A program made the position numbers and the translations under genes. A stretch of DNA of 54,623 bases from a virus. The stretch lies in the IMG/VR virus record IMGVR_UViG_3300042471_000954, positions 1-54,623 of that record. One strand, written 5' to 3'. The notes under the pieces were generated by a model. It searched no databases. It saw nothing but the letters and a program-made list of their open reading frames with translations, and had not been told where the DNA came from. Positions within the stretch are counted from its first letter, which is position 1; each line of letters starts with the position of its first letter. Shown in pieces: positions 2,680 to 50,068 of this stretch.

Positions 2680-3594
2680 TCAGGCGGTCATTGCAGCATC
2701 GGTGATGCCGTAAGCACGGGCAGCGGATCTGCCGTTCATGATTGCAATACCGACCGACCAATCAATGCGGGTACGATCGACTGGTGCATCAGGGACTTCC
2801 CCGAATGACTTGATGTCAATCCCGTAGCCGCCGGCTGAATCAGGGCCCTGCATACCGGTTACTTGCTGATCGCCATAGGCGACGCAGTAAACACTGGTGG
2901 TGCTACCGGCTTCCGTAAAGCCTTGAATCGGCACGTTCTGAGCATTGGTGTCGGTGACCACAATGCGTGTGTCACCGTAGGAGGTGACCAGCTTGCCGAA
3001 CTCATCCCGCGTGGTGGTCAGGAAGCCACCGATAGTGCTGTTGCGGCTAGCGGCAGTAAGGCGCCGACGCAGTGCTTTACCCATGTGGACAACCTTGTTG
3101 TCGCCATCAACGGCGTCAATAAGTTCATCCAATCGGGAAAGCGAGAATGCACCGCCGACGTTGATAGCTTGAGAGCTGTCAACGTTGATCCGCTTCCTGA
3201 AGCCGTCGAACGCACGGGGATCAACCGACTCATCGCCGTTGATCATGTAGTCTTCAAGGGTCAGCCGCAAAGAGCGAACTTTAGCCTCGATTTGCTGGGC
3301 CCTGGCTTGAGTGCCCTTGTTCTTGATGATGTGCATGTCCACATCAATGTCCCCGCCGAACATCTTGAGTCGTTCGTATTGGGGGTTGATGACACCGTAA
3401 GTGGCATCATAGGTTTCGTTCAAACCACGAAACCCAACACCGGGCAGTTCATCTTCAGTGGCATAGTCCAAGCCGCCTTGCACATTGGCAAACGGCAGAA
3501 GGCGAATCATCTCGCTTTCGGCGAGAGCGCGAATAACGACCACCCGTTGCTGATTGGTATCAGTCTTGGCGGCCTCCAGAAGTGTCAGTCCCAT
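2680..3594 (-). CDS. Major capsid protein (HK97-fold type), 304 aa
   Basis: The pattern LEDYMINGDESVDPRAFDGF, then AINVGGAFSLSRLDELIDAV, LRRRLTAASRNS and DRTRIDWSVGIAIMNGRSAA matches the HK97-fold coat proteins of siphoviruses in which the E-loop is followed by a NGD...P..F.GL segment. Length of 304 aa is normal. There is no N-terminal delta domain; a separate scaffold gene precedes it (3758-4573), which agrees. The 163-bp leader holds three copies of GGCGTGATGCC on the coding strand. Oddity: it lies downstream of the whole tail module instead of next to portal. Confidence 0.85.
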   Translation of the reverse strand: MGLTLLEAAKTDTNQQRVVVIRALAESEMIRLLPFANVQGGLDYATEDELPGVGFRGLNETYDATYGVINPQYERLKMFGGDIDVDMHIIKNKGTQARAQQIEAKVRSLRLTLEDYMINGDESVDPRAFDGFRKRINVDSSQAINVGGAFSLSRLDELIDAVDGDNKVVHMGKALRRRLTAASRNSTIGGFLTTTRDEFGKLVTSYGDTRIVVTDTNAQNVPIQGFTEAGSTTSVYCVAYGDQQVTGMQGPDSAGGYGIDIKSFGEVPDAPVDRTRIDWSVGIAIMNGRSAARAYGITDAAMTA

Positions 3595-3628
3595 TGTGGG
3601 GAATCCAGGTGAAGGTCAAGGGAGGGGT

Positions 3629-3702
3629 GGCATCACGCCAAAAGGACACCGCAAGGCATCACGCCGAGCTGCTTGATTTGGGACCGACTTAGGCATCACG
3701 CC
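3629..3702 (-). repeat. Three 11-bp repeats GGCGTGATGCC in the capsid-gene leader
   Basis: GGCATCACGCC on the plus strand occurs at 3629-3639, 3655-3665 and 3692-3702, and once more at 4582-4592 just upstream of the scaffold start. The arms GGC/GCC make each copy a short dyad. Both gene leaders of the capsid-scaffold pair carry it, so it could be a late operator, a translational control site or a recombination remnant. Confidence 0.7.
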
Positions 3703-3757
3703 ATCAGTCGATCCCTGTTGTCCGATGTTTCCCCGATCCCTAAGCCGTCAGCAGAGA

Positions 3758-4573
3758 TCAACCAAAGGCGTCTGAAAACGCGGCTGGAAGCGGTTGATTC
3801 ATCAGGTCTTTACCTGTGCTGACGCGACCATCACGGCTGCTACGTGCCCCGCCGCCGGTTCCCATCGCGGGCTCAAAGTTGCGCCCCCACACAGGATCGG
3901 ATTGCAGCCGCCGGAGCCACTTGACGGGCTCAAAGCGCTTGCCGGTTTCCGGGTCGATCTCTGGGCTGCCGTTGGCATCAACGACCACAAGTGCGCCGTC
4001 TTCATTGCGGAACTGAGGGCCAAAGCGGCTCCAGACCGAATCAAAGGGGGTGCTGCCGTCGATTTCGGATACCTCGGTGGATCCTTTGGCGCCGATGAAG
4101 GCCTTCTCGGCTAGCTGCCGTACCAGCTCGCGCTGGCGGGCCTCCCGTTCGGCCTGAAGGGCGGTTGTGGATGCTTCCAACTGCTGCGAGTATTTGGCCT
4201 CGATCTGCTGTCGCTCCAGGGCCGCCTGCTGCTCGATCAGCTCCCGTCGTGCTTGCTCCTGCTGAGCTTTGGCCTGTGCCTCGCGTACCGCCTCAGGGTT
4301 GGTGGTGGTCAGTTCCCGCAGTTGAGCTTCCAGGGCCCCGAGGCGGCGATCCTTCTCGCGGTTGGCAGTGCGTTCACGGTCGAGGGTGTGACGCAGCCGA
4401 GTCACATCGTCTCCGTCCCCCTCGCTATCTCCAGTGCCAGCAGCAGGGTCAGTAGCGCCCTGGCTTGCACCGGCTCCAGCAACTGCACCACCACCTGCAC
4501 CAGCACCGCCGCCGCCCTCGCTGCCACCCTCAGGGCTCTGGAGGATGAACTGTTCAAACCATCGCTTGTTCAT
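3758..4573 (-). CDS. Capsid scaffolding protein, 271 aa
   Basis: Three zones are visible: a Gly/Ala/Ser linker (residues about 14-55), a long charged coiled coil (about 57-165, with Glu/Gln/Arg heptads such as ALERQQIEAKYSQQLEAS) and a C-terminal part with PVKWLRRLQSDPVWGRNFE. This build and the position just before the major capsid gene are typical of phage scaffold proteins that guide procapsid assembly. No protease motif is seen, so removal of the scaffold is probably not through a fused protease. Confidence 0.8.
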   Translation of the reverse strand: MNKRWFEQFILQSPEGGSEGGGGAGAGGGAVAGAGASQGATDPAAGTGDSEGDGDDVTRLRHTLDRERTANREKDRRLGALEAQLRELTTTNPEAVREAQAKAQQEQARRELIEQQAALERQQIEAKYSQQLEASTTALQAEREARQRELVRQLAEKAFIGAKGSTEVSEIDGSTPFDSVWSRFGPQFRNEDGALVVVDANGSPEIDPETGKRFEPVKWLRRLQSDPVWGRNFEPAMGTGGGARSSRDGRVSTGKDLMNQPLPAAFSDAFG

Positions 4574-4621
4574 GTGGTCGGGGCATCACGCCCGCGAGCA
4601 ACTACAGCGCAGCTTTCCGGC

Positions 4622-4759
4622 TTAGCGTTTGCCCTGTGGCTTAGGTCGTTGGCGCCGCTCCTGCTCGCGTTCGGCAGCGGCCATGCGGTTAGCCAGCTGC
4701 CGGGTTTGCACCGTCTCTAGGAGGGTTTCGATGGAGTCGGGTTGGGGGGTAGTGGTCAT
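4622..4759 (-). CDS. Small basic protein, 45 aa
   Basis: ATG at 4759 overlaps the stop of the 4756-6096 gene as ATGA. It reads MTTTPQPDSIETLLETVQTR and ends in a basic Gln/Arg-rich tail (REQERRQRPKPQGKR). A short amphipathic helix followed by a nucleic-acid-like basic tail. It sits between tail and scaffold genes and is translationally coupled, which supports it as real. Function unknown. Confidence 0.55.
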   Translation of the reverse strand: MTTTPQPDSIETLLETVQTRQLANRMAAAEREQERRQRPKPQGKR

Positions 4760-6096
4760 ATAGTGATACCAATCTGGCTGAGCCGATCACGGCAATAAGT
4801 GCCGCCGTGGTAGTCATAGGCAACGACCATCCGAACAGGCTCGGGTTGATTTTCTGCGTTCGGTCCCGGCCTCTGGTCAAGTTCGTCATCCAGCCCAGCG
4901 ACAAGCATTTCGCTTGTTATCAGCTCGGTAACGCTTGCGTCAGGAATAATGCCAAAAACCCCTATTTCTGTTGTGGGTGTGCTTGCGACTGATGGGTCAT
5001 CGCGCTTGTAACCCAAGACAGGGATTTCTGGGTTTCCACTGTATTCGGCGAATGATGCCTTCGCTTGCTGTGGTGACTTTACACTAAAGGTTCCATCGGG
5101 GGCAATGCTTTCATAAATCACAGAGGAAACACTGTTGAAGCTTATTCGATAAGGGCTGTCAGGCGGTTGTGGCAAACCCAGCTCTGTAGCAACATAAGGG
5201 TTGGGATGGTTGATCTGATAGGCACCAACAGCCGACTGAGATAAAGCCAACTCCATGCGAACATCAGGATTCAGCGGATTGTAACCAAGCGCAATTCCGC
5301 CCGCTGCGTTTTCGGCCAGTACAGAGTCTATCTTTTTTTGCATAAACGCAGGAAGGGGCTGCGTCAGCTCAACAACATCAGACTCAGTTACCAGGAAACA
5401 GGTGCGCGTTGTGTTTTGTATCGTAAAGTTATTAGGAGAAAAAACAACTGGACCGAACCCCAATCGTTCATACGCATAATTGCGATGATACTGAGCTATA
5501 GAAACGACGAGTATCATATCTGACTGACCAGCGGGGAGCAGGTTCCACCAAAGCCTTGCGCAAAAGTTGTGGGTGCCACTCCCAAATGTCCGTTCTTGCA
5601 CGAGTATTATGGGCAGCAGACCGTTTTCTATCTGGGTCCAAGTTTTTTCAAAGACATCGGTTCCCGTGCCGGTAAATGTCAGGCTATGCCTAAACCGCTT
5701 CCACCTTTCGCCTGATCTGGCCCCGACTGTAACAACAAACTCTAGCGAAGCGCTTGCGGATCCTTCGGTTGTTCTTCTTTCGTAACTAGGGGATGGGTTG
5801 TTCTCGTCCGCGTCAGTTGCATTGGTAATCTCTAACTCATTTGTAATAAGAGTGTAGTTCTTTCCAATGTGCAACCACCCCACTCCCACATCAACTTGGC
5901 CTCCAGGGACAAAACTAGGCTCATCCCTCCTCCTGCTTATCAATGGCGCCGGAGCCAAGGCCATCTCCCGTCTCAGCGTTTCCTTAGACCAGTCCAGCCC
6001 CTTCTTCGCCTTCTTCGCCCGGTTCTTCAGGATCCGGGCCTTCACCAGGTCCAAGATCTTCCAAGGCACCGGGTTGATGTCAACGATCAGGCTCAT
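4756..6096 (-). CDS. Tail-associated protein of unknown function, 446 aa
   Basis: N-terminal 50 residues are basic and helical (KARILKNRAKKAKKGLDW); the rest is beta-rich with repeated aromatic strands (FVVTVGARSGERWKRFRHS, LTFTGTGTDVFEKTWTQIEN). No enzyme motif. The gene overlaps its upstream neighbour by 4 bp and is more AT-rich than the tail genes around it, suggesting later acquisition or fast divergence. By position it is a distal tail or receptor-binding component; no family recognised. Confidence 0.65.
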   Translation of the reverse strand: MSLIVDINPVPWKILDLVKARILKNRAKKAKKGLDWSKETLRREMALAPAPLISRRRDEPSFVPGGQVDVGVGWLHIGKNYTLITNELEITNATDADENNPSPSYERRTTEGSASASLEFVVTVGARSGERWKRFRHSLTFTGTGTDVFEKTWTQIENGLLPIILVQERTFGSGTHNFCARLWWNLLPAGQSDMILVVSIAQYHRNYAYERLGFGPVVFSPNNFTIQNTTRTCFLVTESDVVELTQPLPAFMQKKIDSVLAENAAGGIALGYNPLNPDVRMELALSQSAVGAYQINHPNPYVATELGLPQPPDSPYRISFNSVSSVIYESIAPDGTFSVKSPQQAKASFAEYSGNPEIPVLGYKRDDPSVASTPTTEIGVFGIIPDASVTELITSEMLVAGLDDELDQRPGPNAENQPEPVRMVVAYDYHGGTYCRDRLSQIGITI

Positions 6097-7020: not shown

Positions 7021-9495
7021 TTATCCATTGGGGAACGCAGCGGATGGAGGGATGAACGCCGAGGTGTAGTGAGCCTTGCCATTGGTGACCCGCACCTCGT
7101 CGATCTGACCCTTGAAGTAACGGGGGCTGACACTGGAATCGCCAAACATTAGGAAGTCGCACGTCACCGTGGCTGAACTCGTAATGTCGCCGATGCTCAC
7201 TCCGTCAACATAGGCAGTCACCGTGGAGCCGCTGCGCACCATTGCTACGTGTTGCCAAGTATTTATAGTCAATGCAAAGCCAGTAGCAAACGGGCTCTCG
7301 GAGTCGAAAAAGAACCCAGGATTAGCGCCACCGGGGCGCATCATCAGGGTGCTTTCATTCGCGGCGGACACTAGGGTGTCGAAGCTTCCGTTGCTACCCG
7401 TGCGTCTTGCCCACAGCTCAATAGTAAAATCGCCATTAAATGTAAATACTGAGCTTGTTGGAGTGCGTAGGCGTCCATTGAATTCACCGGATGCCCCGCC
7501 AAACTTACTTTGTGCTGTCGTGATTGTAACAGCGCCATTTTGGATACTCATTGCGTGTTGGTTGCTACTGCTGTCGGTGAATGTCGTGCTGCCGTTACTG
7601 CCATCCATGTGCAGCAATAGCGCATTTGGCACAGGGGTATCCGCAATAACCCCAGACCCGCTGCCTGCAAACAATGCAAGGGTTTCAGCCGACAGGTCCG
7701 CAATAACTCCAGACCCACTGCCCGCAAGTAGCCGCTCTATGAATGCTTCACCCGAGAGATCCGCTATCACCCCAGATCCGCTGCCCGCAAACAACCGCTC
7801 TGGAGTGATCTCTGCAGACAGGTCTGCGATAACCCCAGACCCGCTGCCTGCATACAACTGCTCTGGAGTGATCTCAGCTGACAGGTCTGCAATAACGCCA
7901 GACCCACTGCCTGCAAACAACTCATGCACAACCAAGGCTGTCCCGTAGGACACAGACACGCTCGTAATGCTTTCGGTTGTTGCAGTCAAGCTGTAAGGAG
8001 CTTCCAACACCCAGGTGAGTGAGCGGCTCACGCTTTCCCGCCGCACATTCTCCGCCACCGCCCCCACCACACTGGCCCTAGCCAGATCAGCCGCGTACAC
8101 ATCGCCCTCGACACCAGCCGTCCCGAAGCTGGCCCAGATGCTCCCCGGTGCCATCGGGTCAAACCCACCCGGCGCATTGATCGTGTTCGCCAGGGCTGGG
8201 GTGCTGTTGACCGTGGCGGTAACGGTCGGCAGGTTGGTGGCGGCAACCATCATCGGGAACCAGTCAGCACCGGTAGCACCGGTCACCAGGCCCGCGCCGC
8301 CGTCGAGCATGGCATCACAGCCCACGACCAACCCCTGGGCGTCCCAGGCGAAGGTGGTCCCGTTGGCGCGAAACCTGCCCACGGTGCCGGCCGCCTCCAG
8401 GTAAAGGGTGCCCATCGGTTCGCTGGGGATGTTGCGCAGCTCGGTGGTGATGCTCTTGCCATTGGCCATCCCTGACAGGATGGTGTAGATGCTCTTGCCG
8501 TATTCATAAGCGGCGGCGCTACTGGAGACGTATTCAAACTTTAACCCCGTGCCATTGTCGCCTGCATCCGTAGCAGGTCGCAGGTAGCTATCAGGGGCAA
8601 ACTGCATATCGTATTTATCTGTGCTATTGGTTCCAGCGGAGCCAAACGACATATCTACATACTGGCTTTCATAGGGCTTACCCAATGGGCCAGACTGATT
8701 CCAGCTACCGTTAGTGTTCAGCCTTTCCTGGGCACCTTGAAGCCTTTCGTTCTCCTGGTCTAGCTTGTTCGGCTGGGCCGGGGCCGTGCCTCGCCCGATG
8801 TTGATTGTCTTCTCAACCCCGCGACAGACCAGAGCGCTCATCCGATCAACGAGGGTGTAGGTGCCGCTGATCCGCTCTGCGTCAGCTGATCGCTTTAGCC
8901 CTGCCATAATCGAGGCCGCAACCGTCTTCCCGGCCGAAGTAGCCCCCCAGGCTTCATAAATGACCGTGGTTTGCTTTGTTAGTCCAGCAGCTACATTCCC
9001 TTCCTTTTCTACTATTGTTCTGCGAAGCAGGATGTTGCCGGTTCCAAGGTCAATGTTTTTGTAATTTTCAATCGACAAGCCACCGGCAAAGGCAATGCGT
9101 GGTTCGTATTCATCCGTTGTTACCATTGTTTCTATGGGGCCATCCTCTATAAGTTGGTAGCTATAGTAAGTTTGAGTGATTTTTGTTAATACAGCACCTG
9201 GGAATGCCGGACTTCTCGCTTCAAGCTTCGACTTCCACCGGGTAGGGTTAGCAGCACCGACGCAGGTTGTAGTAGTTGAAATCGTGTTTGCTACTACATC
9301 CTGGACTTGCCTTTTTCCGTCTTTGTCAAGGTATTCAAGCGTCGTATATTCAGTCAGCACTTCCGATGTAGAAGCAAAGCTCACTGAATCAGATCTTGTC
9401 TCAAACGTTACAGGCGGGCCTGGATTCCTAAACCTGTACTGAACCGCAAAAGTTTCGGCAGTGCTGATCGTTTTCTGATAGGTCCAGTTCTGCAT
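7021..9495 (-). CDS. Large tail tip/fibre protein with tandem repeats and C-terminal LamG domain, 824 aa
   Basis: Residues about 1-520 are a mixed beta/helical tail-tip body. Residues about 526-619 hold five tandem units built on AGSGSGVIADLSAE. The last 200 residues form a concanavalin/LamG jelly roll (LLLHMDGSNGSTTFTDSS, then GGASGEFNG, FTIELWARR, WQHVAMVRSGSTVTAYVDG, GQIDEVRVTNG). LamG domains of this type sit on phage tips and bind sugars. The gene overlaps 9495-10283 at its start and follows distal-tail-like genes, so it is probably the central fibre or host-recognition protein. Confidence 0.75.
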   Translation of the reverse strand: MQNWTYQKTISTAETFAVQYRFRNPGPPVTFETRSDSVSFASTSEVLTEYTTLEYLDKDGKRQVQDVVANTISTTTTCVGAANPTRWKSKLEARSPAFPGAVLTKITQTYYSYQLIEDGPIETMVTTDEYEPRIAFAGGLSIENYKNIDLGTGNILLRRTIVEKEGNVAAGLTKQTTVIYEAWGATSAGKTVAASIMAGLKRSADAERISGTYTLVDRMSALVCRGVEKTINIGRGTAPAQPNKLDQENERLQGAQERLNTNGSWNQSGPLGKPYESQYVDMSFGSAGTNSTDKYDMQFAPDSYLRPATDAGDNGTGLKFEYVSSSAAAYEYGKSIYTILSGMANGKSITTELRNIPSEPMGTLYLEAAGTVGRFRANGTTFAWDAQGLVVGCDAMLDGGAGLVTGATGADWFPMMVAATNLPTVTATVNSTPALANTINAPGGFDPMAPGSIWASFGTAGVEGDVYAADLARASVVGAVAENVRRESVSRSLTWVLEAPYSLTATTESITSVSVSYGTALVVHELFAGSGSGVIADLSAEITPEQLYAGSGSGVIADLSAEITPERLFAGSGSGVIADLSGEAFIERLLAGSGSGVIADLSAETLALFAGSGSGVIADTPVPNALLLHMDGSNGSTTFTDSSSNQHAMSIQNGAVTITTAQSKFGGASGEFNGRLRTPTSSVFTFNGDFTIELWARRTGSNGSFDTLVSAANESTLMMRPGGANPGFFFDSESPFATGFALTINTWQHVAMVRSGSTVTAYVDGVSIGDITSSATVTCDFLMFGDSSVSPRYFKGQIDEVRVTNGKAHYTSAFIPPSAAFPNG
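7639..7920 (-). repeat. Five tandem 57-63 bp coding repeats
   Basis: Minus-strand units start at 7920, 7857, 7794, 7731 and 7674; three are 21 codons, one 19, the last is truncated. Core peptide AGSGSGVIADLSAE, with linkers ITPEQL, ITPERL, AFIERL. Near-identical DNA makes this a site where unit number could change by slippage or recombination, altering fibre length. Confidence 0.85.
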
Positions 9496-36472: not shown

Positions 36473-36964
36473 TCATGCGCTGGCCTCCCGTGGCAGCTCC
36501 AGCCCCAGCCGCTCCAGGGCCTCCACCACATCAGCCAGCGAGGTCACACCGAACCGCTTGATCCGCAGCAGATCCGCAGGGGTCAGGTTCAACAGGTGGT
36601 CTACCGTGCTCACCCCTGCCCGCTTGAGGGTGTTGTAGGCGCGGACGGTGCGGAGGTCTAACCGCTCGATCGGCACCGATGCCACGGTGGGCTCCGGGGC
36701 TGGCTGGGTGCTTTCCTGCACCTTGGCGGCAATCAATGCCTCCAACCGAGCCTCAACCTGATCTAGCCGGGCAGCCGTGCTAAGCGGTGCTGGTTCTGCA
36801 GCCACAAGGGATAGGTGTTCGCCCGTCCAGACTTTTTCCTGGGTGGTGAACCGGAACCCGCAGGCTTTGCAGACGCAGCGGCGCCGCTTGGCCTGTGCCT
36901 TGGGTTGATAGCGGGACTCAATGACCCGGTGGCCAATGGCTCCGCATTCGGGACAGGGGATCAT
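36473..36964 (-). CDS. NrdR-type zinc ribbon fused to RNA polymerase alpha-CTD-like domain, 163 aa
   Basis: Residues 1-44: CPECG, RVIESR, RRRCVCKACGFRFTTQE, the NrdR zinc ribbon (C4, C7, C32, C35; compare VIDSR and RRR.C..C..RFTT.E), but no ATP-cone follows. Residues 98-158: PIERLDLRTVRAYNTLKRAG, STVDHLLNLTPADLLRIKRF and GVTSLADVVEALERLGLELP, aligning with RpoA C-terminal domains (LdL-VRayN-LKraGI-tv-dLL--t--DLL-ikNfG-kSl-ev---L---GL-L). R108, N111, G139 and S142 sit where E. coli R265, N268, G296 and S299 contact DNA. Middle is a Pro/Ala linker. Likely a transcription modifier working with host RNA polymerase. Confidence 0.82.
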   Translation of the reverse strand: MIPCPECGAIGHRVIESRYQPKAQAKRRRCVCKACGFRFTTQEKVWTGEHLSLVAAEPAPLSTAARLDQVEARLEALIAAKVQESTQPAPEPTVASVPIERLDLRTVRAYNTLKRAGVSTVDHLLNLTPADLLRIKRFGVTSLADVVEALERLGLELPREASA

Positions 36965-37842
36965 GCCGCCACCCCTGAATCAAACAACGAAGCAGACTGG
37001 CCCTCCGCCTGCTCCAGGAATCGGGCAGCCTGGCGGGCGTACTCGGGCTTCAGTTCAACACCGATATAGCGCCGTCCCATCTTCACGGCCTGATAGCCGG
37101 TGCTGCCGATCCCGTTGAACGGATCCATCACCAAATCGCCAGGGTTGCTGTAGAGGGTCAGGCAGCGTTCAATCACATCCAACTGCAACGGGCAGATGTG
37201 TCGTTCATCTTCCTGTCCCTTGGCCATGCGACCGTTTAGCACCTTGGTCTGATTAACCTGCATCCAAACAGGCGAGGCCAGCTCCTGCCACATGCCCACA
37301 GGCAAATCTTCTGGATCGTGGGTGACTGGATCGGGGTTCTCCTGGTCCTTTCGGAAGAACAGCATGTAGTCAGGCATTCCCACTCGACTACGTGTGCTGT
37401 CTTTCTTTAGTTGCTTGTAAAGCAGGCCTAAGGCTTTGGTCCGCTGCATCTCAATCACAGGATCTTTCCAGATTGTGCAGCGAGCGTGGTAGACCCATCC
37501 GGCGTCCTGGTGAGCACGAACAAGGTCGCCTCCAAAGTCATGCAAACCGATGAATCCATCTTTGCTCTTGCGAGCTGGCAGGTCTGAACAATGCACGCAG
37601 GCAACGCGGCCAGGCTTAAGCACTCGATACAGAGCTTCCGTAAAATAGGCGTAATGCTCCATGAACTCTTCATGGCTGCCGCAGTTACCCATGTCCCGCT
37701 CAGAATCTGAGTAAACAAACAAATCAGAGAATGGCGGCGAGAAGATAGCAAGATCAATGATGCCGTCTGGCATTCCGTTCATTACTTCAATGCAGTCGGC
37801 CAGATAAACTGCCCAGCTGTGGCCTTGATAGTCAGGTTTCAT
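36961..37842 (-). CDS. DNA N6-adenine/N4-cytosine methyltransferase, 293 aa
   Basis: ATG 37842 overlaps the helicase stop. Motif IV IFSPPFSDLF (about residue 32) comes first and motif I DPFNGIGSTGYQAVKMGRRY near residue 240, the beta-class order. ADCIEVMNGMPDG precedes. It methylates phage DNA, often to avoid restriction. Paired with an SNF2 helicase as in many phages. The reading frame is also open for 59 codons upstream, inside the helicase gene, but the overlap start is favoured. Confidence 0.9.
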   Translation of the reverse strand: MKPDYQGHSWAVYLADCIEVMNGMPDGIIDLAIFSPPFSDLFVYSDSERDMGNCGSHEEFMEHYAYFTEALYRVLKPGRVACVHCSDLPARKSKDGFIGLHDFGGDLVRAHQDAGWVYHARCTIWKDPVIEMQRTKALGLLYKQLKKDSTRSRVGMPDYMLFFRKDQENPDPVTHDPEDLPVGMWQELASPVWMQVNQTKVLNGRMAKGQEDERHICPLQLDVIERCLTLYSNPGDLVMDPFNGIGSTGYQAVKMGRRYIGVELKPEYARQAARFLEQAEGQSASLFDSGVAA

Positions 37843-39215
37843 TTGAGAAAATCGGGAAGGGTGACTTGACTTGTGCGTGCGTATGCCTTTTTGAACGCCG
37901 CTGATTGATGGCCATTCATCGCTTCGGCCATAGCTCGCTTCATGCGCTGATGATCCTGAGCTTTGCGCTGCACGTTGTTCCAGATTGATGTCTCCGTGTC
38001 GCTGATCACGACGTGACAAGTAACTGGATTGGTCTGCCCATACCGCCAGGCGCGTCGCACGGCTTGGTAGTGCTGCTCATAGCTGTGGCTGACACTGGCG
38101 AAGATCACCGTGTTGGCGTGCTGCCAGTTGAGGCCTAGGCCAGCCAGCTTAGGCTTGGAAACGATCACCCGCCGCCGGCCAAAAGTGAAGTCGTCCAGGG
38201 CGGCGATCTTTTCCTCTGGGTCCATGGAGCCATGCACCTCGATAGCGTCGGGGATGGACTGAGCGAGGGCCGATGATTCGCCGTTGGTTTCACACCAAAC
38301 GATCACAGCGCCGTCGGCGGCATTGGCGATCTCGGCGGCCTTAGCCACTCGATCATCCAATGTGAGCCGCTTCTCCTTGTGGATCGTAGTGGCGCTGCCA
38401 TCGGGGATCCTGAACAGCATCCCGTCGGGCACGTCCACGGTGATGTCAGCCGAGACAGTGTGCAGCTCATAGCTGAGCGGCGGCAGCACAAATCCTGAAT
38501 CGTCACCACCTAAATCGGATGGCAACGTGGCGGCCCTGGCCCAGCTGGCTACCCAGCCCCAGAAGTCAGCCTGAGCGTGCCCTTTCAGTCGCCAGTCTTG
38601 GCTGGCGGTGCTGGTGTCGTTGACGAACCACCGGCACAGCATCTCCATGCTCCCGAGATGGCCCAAGAACTCCGAGTGATTGCCCAGCTCCATGTGATCG
38701 TTTGGTGCTGGTGTAGCCGTGGCTGCCAGCCGGTACGGGGTCGATGTAAAGGCATCGCAAAGCAGGCGCTTGGTCGGGCCGGAAAACGCCTTAAGAATGG
38801 AGCTTTCATCCAACACGACGCCGCCGTAGACGCTGGGGTCCAGCTTCGGGAGTCGTTCGTAATTGGCGATGTTCACACCTGACCCGGCCTCTGATTGCTC
38901 GCGGATCACGCGGGCATCGACGCCGATTGCGGCGCACTCGCGCTGCATCTGCCTGGCCACTGCCAGCGGGGTCAGGATCAGCGCTGGACGGCCGGACTGC
39001 TGGGCAAACTCAGCAGCAGCAGCGGCCTCGACCCTGGATTTGCCCAGGCCAGTGTCCAGGAAGGCGGCAGCCCTGCCTTTCTCGCAAACAAACTGCAAGG
39101 TGGCCATCTGATGCGGGAAAAGGCTTGGCCACTGATTGGCAGGGGTAAATCCGTTCGAGGTTGCTGCGGTGCCCTTGCAAGCAATGAACTCCCGATAACT
39201 GGTGAGTGTTTTCAT
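37839..39215 (-). CDS. SNF2/DEAD-like helicase, 458 aa
   Basis: Motif I LDTGLGKSRVEAAA (about 53), Ia LILTPLAVARQMQREC, motif II VVLDESSILK, motif III ATATPAPNDHMELG, then a C-terminal RecA-like lobe with VIVSKPKLAGLGLNWQHANT and motif VI QHYQAVRRAWRYGQ. ATP-dependent translocase on DNA, here immediately upstream of a methyltransferase, a pair found in many phages. No nuclease domain. Role in recombination or anti-restriction is inferred. Confidence 0.9.
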   Translation of the reverse strand: MKTLTSYREFIACKGTAATSNGFTPANQWPSLFPHQMATLQFVCEKGRAAAFLDTGLGKSRVEAAAAAEFAQQSGRPALILTPLAVARQMQRECAAIGVDARVIREQSEAGSGVNIANYERLPKLDPSVYGGVVLDESSILKAFSGPTKRLLCDAFTSTPYRLAATATPAPNDHMELGNHSEFLGHLGSMEMLCRWFVNDTSTASQDWRLKGHAQADFWGWVASWARAATLPSDLGGDDSGFVLPPLSYELHTVSADITVDVPDGMLFRIPDGSATTIHKEKRLTLDDRVAKAAEIANAADGAVIVWCETNGESSALAQSIPDAIEVHGSMDPEEKIAALDDFTFGRRRVIVSKPKLAGLGLNWQHANTVIFASVSHSYEQHYQAVRRAWRYGQTNPVTCHVVISDTETSIWNNVQRKAQDHQRMKRAMAEAMNGHQSAAFKKAYARTSQVTLPDFLK

Positions 39216-40450: not shown

Positions 40451-41098
40451 ATGGCAACCGCTACCAAGACCAAAACCCAGGCCCCTGAGGAGGCCATCAG
40501 CATCAAGGCGCCGGATTTCCGGTTCCTGGAGATCAACATCCGGGGCACGGCCCCCCTCGTCGTGAACCGCTTCTCAGCGAAGGCGATCGAGATGATGCGG
40601 GCCACGCAGGAGGCAGGCAGCGCCGCAAAGTCCAAGAAGGTGCGGGAGCCGAAGGACTTTGATGCCCTGTTTGAGAACGCCAAGCATGTTTCAAACGAGG
40701 GCTGGGAAGGCATCCACGCTGCCGCTTTCCGCAATGGCGCCATCAGTGCCTGCCGGGCTGTGGGCTACAAAATGACCCATGCCAAGCTCGCGTTCAGCGT
40801 GCTGCAGGATGGCTTTGATCGGGTAGACGGCGCCCCGCTGGTGCGCCTTTCCGAGGGAGTGGCTGAGCAGTGGGTGGCTCCAACCCGGAACGCTACGGGC
40901 GTGGTTGATCTGCGCTGCCGCCCGATGTACCGGGAATGGGCTGCCGTGTTGCGCATCCGGTATGACGCGGGGATGCTCAGCTCTAGTGATGTCGTGAACC
41001 TGATCAGCCGGGTAGGTCTTCAGGTGGGCATCGGCGAAGGGCGCCCCGATAGCAAGGCCAGCGCAGGCCTAGGCTTTGGCCTCTTTGAACTTATCTAA
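40451..41098 (+). CDS. Conserved phage protein, 215 aa
   Basis: Key words: EINIRGTAPLVVNRFSAKAI, NEGWEGIHAAAFRNGAISAC, WAAVLRIRYDAGMLSSSDVV, NLISRVGLQVGIGEGRPDSK. I recognise the vGiGegRP...G.G.F close as a conserved phage family with no established function that I can name. Beta-rich ends and a helical middle. Sits across from the coiled-coil protein in the recombination/replication area and is followed by the G-rich repeat tract; probably read together with 42078-42635. Confidence 0.65.
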   Translation: MATATKTKTQAPEEAISIKAPDFRFLEINIRGTAPLVVNRFSAKAIEMMRATQEAGSAAKSKKVREPKDFDALFENAKHVSNEGWEGIHAAAFRNGAISACRAVGYKMTHAKLAFSVLQDGFDRVDGAPLVRLSEGVAEQWVAPTRNATGVVDLRCRPMYREWAAVLRIRYDAGMLSSSDVVNLISRVGLQVGIGEGRPDSKASAGLGFGLFELI

Positions 41099-42077
41099 CA
41101 ATCGGATTACGTGGGCCATGGTTGCGTCTGCTGCCATGGCCTTGCAGGCATGGTGCGGAAGGCGTGTCCGGGGCTCGCAAGGGTTGACGCGGCAGGCATG
41201 GCCCGGTCAGGTCGGAACGGCCAAGCCGGGAGGGCGTGGCAGGCACGGTGTGGCAGGGGAGGCCAACCATGGTCGGGCCGGGAACGGCAGGCATGGCTTC
41301 GAGGGGCTTGGCGAGATCTGGACTGGACGGGCACGGCAGGCATGGCTTCGGAAGGCACGGCCAGGCCAGTTCTGGCAGGCAAGGCGTGGTCAAGCGTGGA
41401 AGGTCTGGCACGGCTGGCTAGGTGTGGTCGGGCTAGGGCAAGGCACGGCTGGCAAGGTCTGGTGGGCACCTCTGGCGGGGCATGGCAGGCGAAGCAACAA
41501 GGGCATGGCTGGGTCTGGTGTGGCAGGGTGCTGCAGGCATGACTAGGCGCGGAAGGACAGGTTCGGCAGGCAAGGCAGTGGTGGCAGGGCCAGGACCGGA
41601 CTGGCAGGCGTGGCACGACGTGGCGTTGAACGGCGGGGTTGGCAGGCACGGAGTGGCGAGGTCAGGAGCGATCGAGGCACGGCATCGGACGGCAGGCATG
41701 GTCAGGAAGGCAGGGATCGGCAGGCAAGGAAAGGCGTGGCCTGGACAGGCGTGGCTGGCAAGGCGAGATCTGGCGCGGAACGTCTGGCGCGGCACGGCAG
41801 GCATGGCACGGTCTGGATGGGTAGGGCACGGCAGGACTGGCTAGGAAGGCCTGGCGGTGTACGCCGTCGCAGGCTCGGCGTGGCTCGGCAAGGCGCGGCA
41901 TGGAAGGGCATGGCAGGCAAGGCAAGGAACGATCGAGGATCGACCGGGCGTGGCGCTGCTGGCCTCGCTTGTTGGCGCAAGGCACCGCACGATGCGGCTC
42001 AGCTTGCGTGTTGCGATTGCCAAATGGCAGCAGAATGGGGGCTTGAATGGGCCCCCTCATTCCTATCCCCTGAACCC
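41099..42077 (+). repeat. G-rich degenerate pentanucleotide repeat tract, about 1 kb
   Basis: No convincing gene. The plus strand is built on GGCAN words. GGCAGGCATGG occurs exactly at 41191, 41286, 41335, 41691 and 41796, and GGCAGGCAAGG at 41374, 41565, 41719 and 41912. Early copies are about 46-49 bp apart. GCGAGATCTGG recurs at 41311 and 41763. In 41281-41340, G is 28 of 60 and C 13. Long frames on both strands (Gly/Arg/His-rich plus, Pro/Cys/Leu-rich minus) follow from the 5-bp period and are not taken as genes. Confidence 0.75.
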
Positions 42078-42635
42078 ATGGATTTCATCAAAGCTGAACC
42101 TGAATACGTCTTCCGAATTGAGGATGGCGAGGAAGCGATGGGCGTCGATGCTCAGACCGCTGGCAGCGAGCTAGACCGCATCCGGCGGCGTGATGGCACG
42201 ATCCGCCCTGCTGTGGTGGTTGACGAGGCCAGACCGGAGCAGGCACCGCTGCATCCGGCGTTCGAGTGGCGCGACCCGGTGGCTGCTGAGCAGTGGCGCG
42301 AGCATCAGGCCAGCACGCTGATCAAGGTGGTGCGGGTGGTGCCTGCTGCTCCTGTGGAGCCCCGCGTGGCCTCGGTGCGGCCTGTCACCCAGCCGGTGGC
42401 CCCGTTGGTGGAGCGCTACGACCCGATGGCTAAGGAGGTGCTGGAGGCCGTGGGCTTGGTGGTAGAGGCCCGCCGCAGGGTTGAGGAGCTGAAACTACGC
42501 ACCCAGCGCATGGGTGATCGCAAGTCGATGGCTGTCCTAGGAGTGGCGTTTGGGATGCTCGATGAAGCCCATGAAGCGCTGACCAACTGTCAGCTCAGTA
42601 GCACATGGGAGCGAGAACTACAGCAGGCCCGGTGA
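42078..42635 (+). CDS. Conserved phage protein, 185 aa
   Basis: MDFIKAEPEYVFRIEDGEEA, then HPAFEWRDPVAAEQWREHQA and STLIKVVRVV, the words of a conserved phage family (HPAFeWdd..AAe.~R..QA..lI..v.vv) of unknown function; C-terminal helix pair ends in QLSSTWERELQQA. ATG 42078 is the first start after the repeat tract although the frame is open far upstream. Ends just before a strong terminator. Confidence 0.7.
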   Translation: MDFIKAEPEYVFRIEDGEEAMGVDAQTAGSELDRIRRRDGTIRPAVVVDEARPEQAPLHPAFEWRDPVAAEQWREHQASTLIKVVRVVPAAPVEPRVASVRPVTQPVAPLVERYDPMAKEVLEAVGLVVEARRRVEELKLRTQRMGDRKSMAVLGVAFGMLDEAHEALTNCQLSSTWERELQQAR

Positions 42636-42654
42636 GACTGGAACAGAGATCGAG

Positions 42655-42678
42655 GGGGCCGTGGTTGGCCCCTTTTTT
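42655..42678 (+). terminator. Rho-independent terminator
   Basis: GGGGCC-GTGGTT-GGCCCC followed by six T on the plus strand, 20 bp after the stop of 42078-42635. Confidence 0.92.
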
Positions 42679-47152: not shown

Positions 47153-47168
47153 GGGGGGGGGGGGGGGG
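47153..47168 (+). repeat. G16 homopolymer upstream of a plus-strand gene
   Basis: Sixteen G, 33 bp before ATG 47202. Long enough for slippage; may change leader length, promoter spacing or reading frame. Assembly length error is possible at such a tract. Confidence 0.85.
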
Positions 47169-49024: not shown

Positions 49025-50068
49025 ATGCAAAGCTCAGCAAATGGAAGAGAGGGCGGGTTTACATGCTTGCCGAACTGGCTCTTTGGTCAGGCCACGGCGC
49101 AGGAGCTGGTGTTGCTGCTAGCGCTGCAGCATCACGCCCCGAAGATTCACCCGAGCCTGGCCACGTTGGCGCGGGAATCAGGCCTTGGCAGGAGCACAGT
49201 CTGCCGTCTAATCACCGTGCTTGAGGAGCGCGGCTGGCTTCGTACGGAACGGCGGTTTGCGGACAACGGAGGGAACAACTCGACCGTCTACCACTTGCTG
49301 ATTTGGCCTGTCAGATCGGCAGAATTGGAGCCCACTGAACCCATGACCCTTGTCCCACAGCGGGACTACCCCTTATCCCACAGCGGGACCACCCTTATCC
49401 CAGAGCGGGACCACCCTTGTCCCACAGCGGGACACAAACAATATGAATCTAAGAATAAAAATGAAAACAACAGCCTTAGACCCCCCTTACCCCCCAGCGG
49501 GGGGAACGCGGGCGAGGGGCAGGGCGAGCTGATCACGGTCGAAGCCTTGCCCGTTGTCGTGCCCGTTGATGCTGCGCTTTCCAAAAGCCCGGAATCGGCT
49601 AAGGTTCCAGAACCACCACCACAGACCATGGCCCTGACCAAGCCAGCGCGGAAGCCGCGCTTCCAGCCCTCACACGACCTGATCCCTGCCGAGCTACTGC
49701 CCGTCCATCCCGAGATCCTGGGTTTCTGGGCCGTGAAAGCCGGAGCCCGCACCCAGCAAGCCTGGAACGGCCTGATGACCCAGCTAGCCCTGATCCAACA
49801 GGATCCCCTGGGAGGCACCGAAGCGCTCCGCAGCCAGCTCCAGGAGGGCATCGATCGGGCACCGATCAAGCCGTGGATGTCGGTCACTCACTCGCTGTGG
49901 CGCACCTACGGCATGAAGGGCGCTCGCCCTGGCCTGGGCGGCAACCGCCGCAAGACACCGGAGGAGCACGCAGCCGATTCGATCGCATTCATTGAAGCCC
50001 GCGATGCCCGCAGAGCAGCCGCCGCGTCAGCTCCCGGTCAAACCGTGCCGTGCGAGGTGCTCGCGTGA
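49025..50068 (+). CDS. Lambda O-like replication initiator with internal iterons, 347 aa
   Basis: ATG 49025 aligns with the start of the paralogue (an upstream ATG 49004 is also in frame). Residues about 10-75 form a winged helix: FTCLPNWLFGQATAQELVLL, LALQHHAPKIHPSLATLARE, SGLGRSTVCRLITVLEERGW. Residues about 110-137 are encoded by four iterons (VPQRDYPLSHSGTTLIPERD). The second half, WAVKAGARTQQAWNGLMTQL ... KPWMSVTHSLWRTYGM, is probably the partner-binding domain. Same plan as lambda O: initiator gene containing its own origin. Confidence 0.8.
   Translation: MQSSANGREGGFTCLPNWLFGQATAQELVLLLALQHHAPKIHPSLATLARESGLGRSTVCRLITVLEERGWLRTERRFADNGGNNSTVYHLLIWPVRSAELEPTEPMTLVPQRDYPLSHSGTTLIPERDHPCPTAGHKQYESKNKNENNSLRPPLPPSGGNAGEGQGELITVEALPVVVPVDAALSKSPESAKVPEPPPQTMALTKPARKPRFQPSHDLIPAELLPVHPEILGFWAVKAGARTQQAWNGLMTQLALIQQDPLGGTEALRSQLQEGIDRAPIKPWMSVTHSLWRTYGMKGARPGLGGNRRKTPEEHAADSIAFIEARDARRAAAASAPGQTVPCEVLA
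49350..49480 (+). repeat. Candidate replication origin: four iterons plus A-rich segment
   Basis: TTGTCCCACAGCGGGAC 49350-49366, TTATCCCACAGCGGGAC 49373-49389, TTATCCCAGAGCGGGAC 49395-49411, TTGTCCCACAGCGGGAC 49417-49433. Spacing is 22-23 bp, two helical turns; each has GTCCC/GGGAC or ATCCC/GGGAC arms. They are followed by an A-rich unwinding-type segment at 49434-49480 (ACAAACAATATGAATCTAAG, AATAAAAATGAAAACAAC). Confidence 0.85.

What the first reader, a model, noticed from the sequence alone, without database searches (positions are those of the whole stretch)
41099..42077. One-kilobase G-rich degenerate pentanucleotide repeat tract inside the early region
About 980 bp without a supported gene, built on GGCAN with recurrent GGCAGGCATGG/GGCAGGCAAGG, strong G over C bias on the plus strand, and placed between two co-oriented genes followed by a strong terminator. 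In a densely packed phage this much non-coding DNA is unlikely to be idle. Options: R-loop or G-quadruplex forming secondary origin, recombination hot spot, long structured or sponge RNA, DNA-bending site for packaging. None is proven.
Basis: partly seen in the sequence, partly recalled or inferred. Interest (0 to 1): 0.72.

Follow-up and report, generated by a model that had tools for sequence, protein, structure and literature searches.

The report
Phage VIPR guide-RNA array
The G-rich kilobase next to a CRISPR-like gene in this cyanobacterial virus is most likely a stack of guide RNAs of the newly described VIPR type, which phages appear to use to silence rival phages; it is an unreported member of a system first posted in 2026.

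Summary
41099-42077 is a non-coding, strand-biased tract of degenerate GGYNN pentanucleotides broken by 4-nt GGCA joints. Most likely it is the vrRNA (guide RNA) array of a VIPR system, described in a 2026 preprint (PMC13142463). The gene before it (40451-41098) is the RAMP protein Vipr: its family profile matches the only solved Vipr (36pp, E 3e-12) and its model matches Cas7/Csm3 proteins. The gene after it is a conserved accessory gene. Searching 2.9 million viral contigs for the repeat pattern alone gave 120 stretches; 97 encode this Vipr family and most others are cut off at an end. All 199 tracts near a vipr gene lie on its strand. Joint-to-joint distance is 5n+4 in 1177 of 1352 cases. 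Guides from related systems match rival phage genes under the published one-base-skip rule with the skipped base at codon position 3, including a mycobacteriophage Quico guide (19/20) in the tape-measure gene of Che8. No credible target was found for the window's own guides, and there are no RNA data. The window's copy is a relaxed version; jointed, tail-less arrays differ from the type II arrays characterised in the preprint.

The parts
40451..41098 (+). vipr gene: RAMP (Cas7/Csm3-fold) protein of 215 aa, PHROG 4652
   Evidence: Profile of 88 relatives matches PDB 36pp_D 'SUSP1 Vipr protein', E 3.3e-12; AlphaFold2 pLDDT 93.8; Foldseek top hits Csm/Cmr/type VII Cas7-type chains; VIA-align Z 11.9, 3.6 A over 148 residues; invariant residues include G189, G193, R198 and G210 of the C-terminal glycine-rich loop.
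41113..41142 (+). strong hairpin between the vipr stop codon and the first repeat, possible 5' border of the vrRNA precursor
   Evidence: RNA fold -21.4 kcal/mol for 41096-41150; hairpins of different sequence stand at the same place in L012 and L020 (read).
41099..42077 (+). vrRNA array: degenerate GGYNN repeats with GGCA joints; best-scoring chain 41233-41923; GGCAGGC joints at about 41191, 41238, 41286, 41335, 41374, 41484, 41603, 41641, 41719, 41796 and 41912
   Evidence: Chain score 32.5 against a shuffle maximum of 4.5; module parsing; linkage of such tracts to vipr.
42037..42056 (+). hairpin GGGGGCTT-GAAT-GGGCCCCC after the last repeat and before the next gene, possible 3' border or terminator of the precursor (no long T run)
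   Evidence: RNA fold; sequence kept in relatives L012 and L014.
42078..42635 (+). accessory gene (vap-like), 185 aa, PHROG 15946; no known fold found, C-terminal helical hairpin
   Evidence: Homologue in 168 of 188 vipr loci and 36 of 43 contigs; pLDDT 88.5; no PDB match at E <= 0.001; not detectably related to SUSP1 vap1.
42654..42678 (+). G+C-rich hairpin with T6, terminator-like, after the accessory gene
   Evidence: Sequence and RNA fold; the consensus scan did not list it.

Best explanation
The tract is the vrRNA array of a VIPR (Viral Interference Programmable Repeat) system in a phage of freshwater Synechococcaceae. It would be transcribed with or after vipr into RNA whose GGY triplets are gripped by successive Vipr subunits, a RAMP filament like Cas7 on crRNA. 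The NN pairs between them read double-stranded DNA with one target base skipped per pair, and the complex represses rival phage or prophage genes. Each module (GGCA joint plus about 6-12 GGYNN units) most likely specifies one target, and the joint marks the border. Shown here: the RAMP fold, the Vipr match, the repeat grammar, the one-strand linkage and the accessory gene. Supported in relatives: the skip rule and rival-phage targets. Inferred: transcription, guide boundaries and repression in this phage.
For: Vipr identity. Repeat grammar over about 200 loci: third base C 87% or T 8%, two free bases, 1331 of 1561 four-base units are GGCA, joint spacing 5n+4 in 1177 of 1352. Pattern-only search of viral contigs: 96 of 120 tract loci encode Vipr, 97 with L111; 20 of the 24 first scored as lacking it have the tract within 1.2 kb of an end; 199 tracts on the vipr strand, 0 opposite. 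Targets: with one base skipped, 639 guides against 3.3 Mb give three independent matches at E < 1e-3 (not counting two found by their own pattern), none in two shuffles and none for 0, 2 or 3 skipped bases. These three and the vipr-gene matches L198 to L201 (20/22) and L069 to L165 (14/14) all put the skipped base at codon position 3. Quico guide: 19/20 in the tape-measure gene of Che8, Squirty and Minnie, with one skipped base differing among them. In the window's own clade the second G and the Y vary in 26-30% of columns but the NN bases in 12-16%. Mechanism and rule: PMC13142463.
Against: The window's array is relaxed: many units lack a full GGY and several modules are not 5n+4, so it could be decaying. 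No target for window-clade guides in 1 Mb of related phages; the one exact 18-base hit in viral contigs (L308) is about what chance gives. No RNA, binding or infection data. Arrays here lack the 3' tail of SUSP1 vrRNAs. No sigma-70-like promoter found. Individual target matches are modest after counting all guides tried.
Confidence: 0.93

Rival explanations
1. A VIPR array in decay: vipr is intact but the window's repeats have lost register and no longer form working guides.
For: Units such as CGAGG, GATCT and GCCAA and module lengths of 5n+3 or 5n in the window against clean 5n+4 arrays in L020, L024 and L043.
Against: Among orthologous modules of the window clade the NN bases are kept better than the G2/Y positions, the opposite of free decay; modules are gained and lost while the rest stays over 90% identical in several relatives; vipr and accessory frames are intact.
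Confidence: 0.15
2. A DNA-level element: G-quadruplex or R-loop forming origin, recombination hot spot or packaging site.
For: Strong G over C bias.
Against: No canonical G4 motif, G4Hunter mean 0.57; a DNA element does not explain the fixed C/T third base, the 5n+4 register, the linkage to one RAMP family on one strand, or in-frame gapped matches to rival genes.
Confidence: 0.03
3. A coding tract: repeat protein fused in frame to the downstream gene (ORF 41610-42635).
For: An open frame runs from 41610 into the accessory gene.
Against: Indels of 1, 2, 4, 10, 31, 34, 43, 48 and similar bases between relatives; no PHROG match; 5n+4 modules shift the frame at most joints.
Confidence: 0.01

Closest known systems
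VIPR systems (Vipr protein plus vrRNA), PMC13142463; type II reference Escherichia phage SUSP1, PDB 36pp
   Same: RAMP-fold Vipr, small accessory gene, adjacent same-strand GGY/NN pentanucleotide RNA genes, phage-encoded, one-base-skip matches in rival phages with the skipped base at the wobble position.
   Different: Arrays here are continuous, GGC-based, with 4-nt GGCA joints and no repeated 3' tail; SUSP1 has separate GGT-based vrRNAs with a structured tail; the accessory protein is not detectably related to SUSP1 vap1. May correspond to the staggered arrays the preprint mentions (its fig. S18), which could not be read here.
Class 1 CRISPR-Cas RAMPs (Csm3, Cmr, Cas7 of type VII)
   Same: Same fold of the RNA-binding subunit (Z up to 11.9).
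   Different: No array of identical repeats with unique spacers here; target information lies in the NN pairs inside each repeat.
TRAP and its (G/U)AG repeats in the trp leader RNA
   Same: Triplets spaced by a few free bases bound by repeated protein subunits (from general knowledge).
   Different: No sequence or fold relation was indicated; the TRAP spacer bases carry no target information. An analogy only.

Membership tests
VIPR system | Vipr: RAMP-fold protein of about 20 kD with glycine-rich loop | tested here: met
   Profile to 36pp_D E 3.3e-12; the same profile finds SUSP1 vipr, E 1.1e-14; RAMP fold.
VIPR system | Adjacent RNA gene of alternating GGY/NN units | tested here: met
   met in relaxed form in the window, strictly in relatives.
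VIPR system | Minimal locus with an accessory (vap) gene | tested here: met
   Accessory gene homologue in 168 of 188 loci; its vap type was not assigned.
VIPR system | One-base-skip target matches in rival mobile elements | tested here: inconclusive
   Supported in relatives; not found for the window's own guides.
VIPR system | vrRNA expressed and co-purifying with Vipr | not testable with these tools
   Needs small-RNA sequencing and pull-down.
VIPR type II (SUSP1-like) | Separate vrRNAs each ending in a conserved structured 3' tail | tested here: not met
   Modules follow one another with only a 4-nt joint; SUSP1 control shows the tail.
VIPR type II (SUSP1-like) | vap1 accessory protein | tested here: inconclusive
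   Accessory-gene profiles score SUSP1 vap1 at only 5.4 and 1.2 bits.
VIPR with hammerhead-interspersed arrays | Hammerhead ribozymes between guides | tested here: not met
   No Rfam match above gathering score on either strand of the window.
CRISPR-Cas | Array of near-identical direct repeats with unique spacers | tested here: not met
   No such array in the tract.

The most novel reading that the evidence does not exclude
Jointed, tail-less arrays are a distinct VIPR architecture in which a phase-shifting 4-nt GGCA unit is the only border between guides, so that one RNA carries many guides; guides may even read a few units across a joint, as the Quico guide's match in Che8 hints (5 of 6 further bases match at zero offset).
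Probability: 0.35. Interest if true: 0.72.

Novelty: new member of a known kind. Interest (0 to 1): 0.62.

Why it matters
It turns an unexplained phage non-coding kilobase into a readable guide array and shows the system in cyanophages and in well-studied Mycobacterium and Gordonia phages, hosts that the main text of the preprint does not mention (Mycobacterium and cyanobacteria checked). The Quico/Che8 pair gives a directly testable guide and target in a standard laboratory host. The 5n+4 joint grammar lets such arrays be found from DNA pattern alone and bears on how one precursor could yield many guides.

Tried and rejected
Rfam scan of the window: nothing. BLAST of the tract in plasmids: nothing. 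Pfam and PADLOC for Vipr: no family. Self-targeting by guides: no excess over shuffles. Targets of window-clade guides in 1 Mb of relatives: none beyond chance. An exact scan of viral contigs with a conserved Cheoctovirus guide gave only non-mycobacterial, probably chance hits. Reading across joints, tested on 420 joints: no signal. Hairpin at the array end as a universal feature: clear in the cyanophage group, weak elsewhere. Low-complexity match of a mis-registered Donkeykong guide in Tweety discarded. The chain score misses SUSP1's short GGT arrays, so tract counts are lower bounds. Several mycobacteriophage accessions recalled from memory are not in the collection.

Full report
WHAT IS THERE. 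The region 41099-42077 follows a stop codon directly and ends at the ATG of the next gene on the same strand. It has the strongest GC skew of the window (+0.28) and 189 GG against 33 CC. A chain score for GG starts spaced by five or four bases gives 32.5 over 41233-41923, against at most 4.5 in shuffled windows and 4.3 in shuffles of the tract itself. Tandem Repeats Finder sees only fragments. The tract is not a gene: relatives differ by indels of many lengths that are not multiples of three.

THE GRAMMAR. In related loci the repeat is strict. Units are GGYNN (third base C 87%, T 8%; the last two bases free) and runs of units are separated by a 4-nt unit, almost always GGCA (1331 of 1561). The distance from one joint to the next is 5n+4 in 1177 of 1352 cases, most often 39-59 nt, i.e. 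7-11 units. The window's copy is relaxed: some units have lost a G and some modules are out of register.

LINKAGE TO ONE PROTEIN. The first BLAST hits were GGC-repeat tracts in Cheoctovirus mycobacteriophages and Cyanophage Cy-LDV1, each next to a relative of the gene at 40451-41098. That protein family was then found in 33 phage records and in 119 viral contigs, 80 of them kept. Of the 24 first scored as lacking it, 20 have the tract within 1.2 kb of an end of the stretch. Of 199 tracts within 4 kb of the gene, all lie on its strand. The gene at 42078-42635 has a homologue in 168 of 188 loci. Tracts stand most often between the two genes or after the second. In Gordonia phages ODay and Ecliptus the set sits between tail genes. 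Three Cheoctoviruses tested (Che8, Tweety, Fruitloop) lack both protein and tract. This is an optional cassette.

IDENTITY. The 88-sequence profile matches one solved protein, 36pp_D 'SUSP1 Vipr protein', E 3.3e-12. The AlphaFold2 model (pLDDT 93.8) is a RAMP: the best Foldseek hits are Cas7-type subunits of Csm, Cmr and type VII complexes, Z up to 11.9. The preprint PMC13142463 describes VIPR: Vipr is a phage RAMP that binds vrRNAs of alternating GGY/NN motifs; the NN pairs read double-stranded DNA with one base skipped per pair; the complex represses rival phages. As a control, our profile finds vipr in SUSP1 (E 1.1e-14), where the neighbouring non-coding DNA shows 9-12 GGY units and a structured tail. 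The tract is therefore most likely a vrRNA array.

INDEPENDENT SUPPORT FOR THE CODE. I decoded modules as guides and searched the fetched DNA. With 639 guides against 3.3 Mb, the one-base-skip rule gave five matches at E < 1e-3. Two of these (L302, L308) were fetched by their own pattern and do not count. The other three are L054 to L160, L187 to L217 and Quico to Che8. Two shuffled sets gave none, and rules with 0, 2 or 3 skipped bases gave none. Two more guides match vipr genes of other phages: L198 to L201 with 20/22 and L069 to L165 with 14/14. In all five the skipped base is codon position 3 of a long reading frame. The best documented case is mycobacteriophage Quico: a 10-unit module matches 19 of 20 bases in the tape-measure gene of Che8. 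The same 19/20 holds in Squirty and Minnie, where the skipped base of one codon differs (GGC against GGT), and falls to 15/20 in the more distant Saroj. Each match is modest after counting all guides tried; their common codon phase and rival-phage setting make the set persuasive. No self-targeting was seen. In the window's own clade, orthologous modules vary more at the second G and the Y (26-30% of columns) than at NN (12-16%), as expected if NN carries the information.

WHAT IS NOT SHOWN. The window's own guides have no credible target: none in 1 Mb of relatives, and the single exact 18-base hit in viral contigs (L308, in codon phase) is about what chance gives. No RNA data exist here. No sigma-70-like promoter was found. 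Hairpins flank the array in the window (41113-41142, 42037-42056), but a 3' hairpin is not universal. The accessory protein has no known fold and no detectable relation to SUSP1 vap1. Whether guides can read across a joint is open: one suggestive case, no general signal.

HOST. A protein 95% identical lies in a Synechococcaceae metagenome bin, so the phage most likely infects freshwater picocyanobacteria; this is inference.

NOVELTY. VIPR was posted in April 2026. This is a new member. The jointed, tail-less array differs from the type II systems characterised in the main text but may be the staggered kind mentioned there, whose figure could not be read.

Noticed in passing
L103, L131, L202: Clean GGCNN tracts away from the contig end with no detectable Vipr of this family; they may belong to other VIPR types or orphan arrays.
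   Followed up: partly
L088 (Mycobacterium phage Gorge) 3842-5059: The vipr and accessory genes are annotated as one open frame and the Vipr match is split between two frames, suggesting a frameshift or fusion.
   Followed up: no
L085 and L091 (Gordonia phages ODay, Ecliptus) about 2700-5660: The vipr-array-accessory set with two small DNA-binding genes sits between tail chaperone and tape-measure genes, like a mobile cassette.
   Followed up: no
window 36961-39215 (- strand): Overlapping DNA methylase and helicase genes near the cassette; homologues lie near vipr in 16-18 of 188 loci.
   Followed up: partly
window 7640-7922 and 49346-49433: Tandem repeats of 63-bp (4.6 copies, inside an 824-aa minus-strand ORF) and 22-bp (4 copies, inside a plus-strand ORF) units.
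   Followed up: no
window 47153-47168: Run of 16 G.
   Followed up: no
NZ_LR026982.1 25432-26055 (Rhodoplanes serenus plasmid); L310 (Bacterium HR16), L311 (Planctomycetaceae bin): Vipr of the same family, 51-53% identical, in a plasmid record and in bacterial assemblies, showing spread beyond phage records.
   Followed up: no
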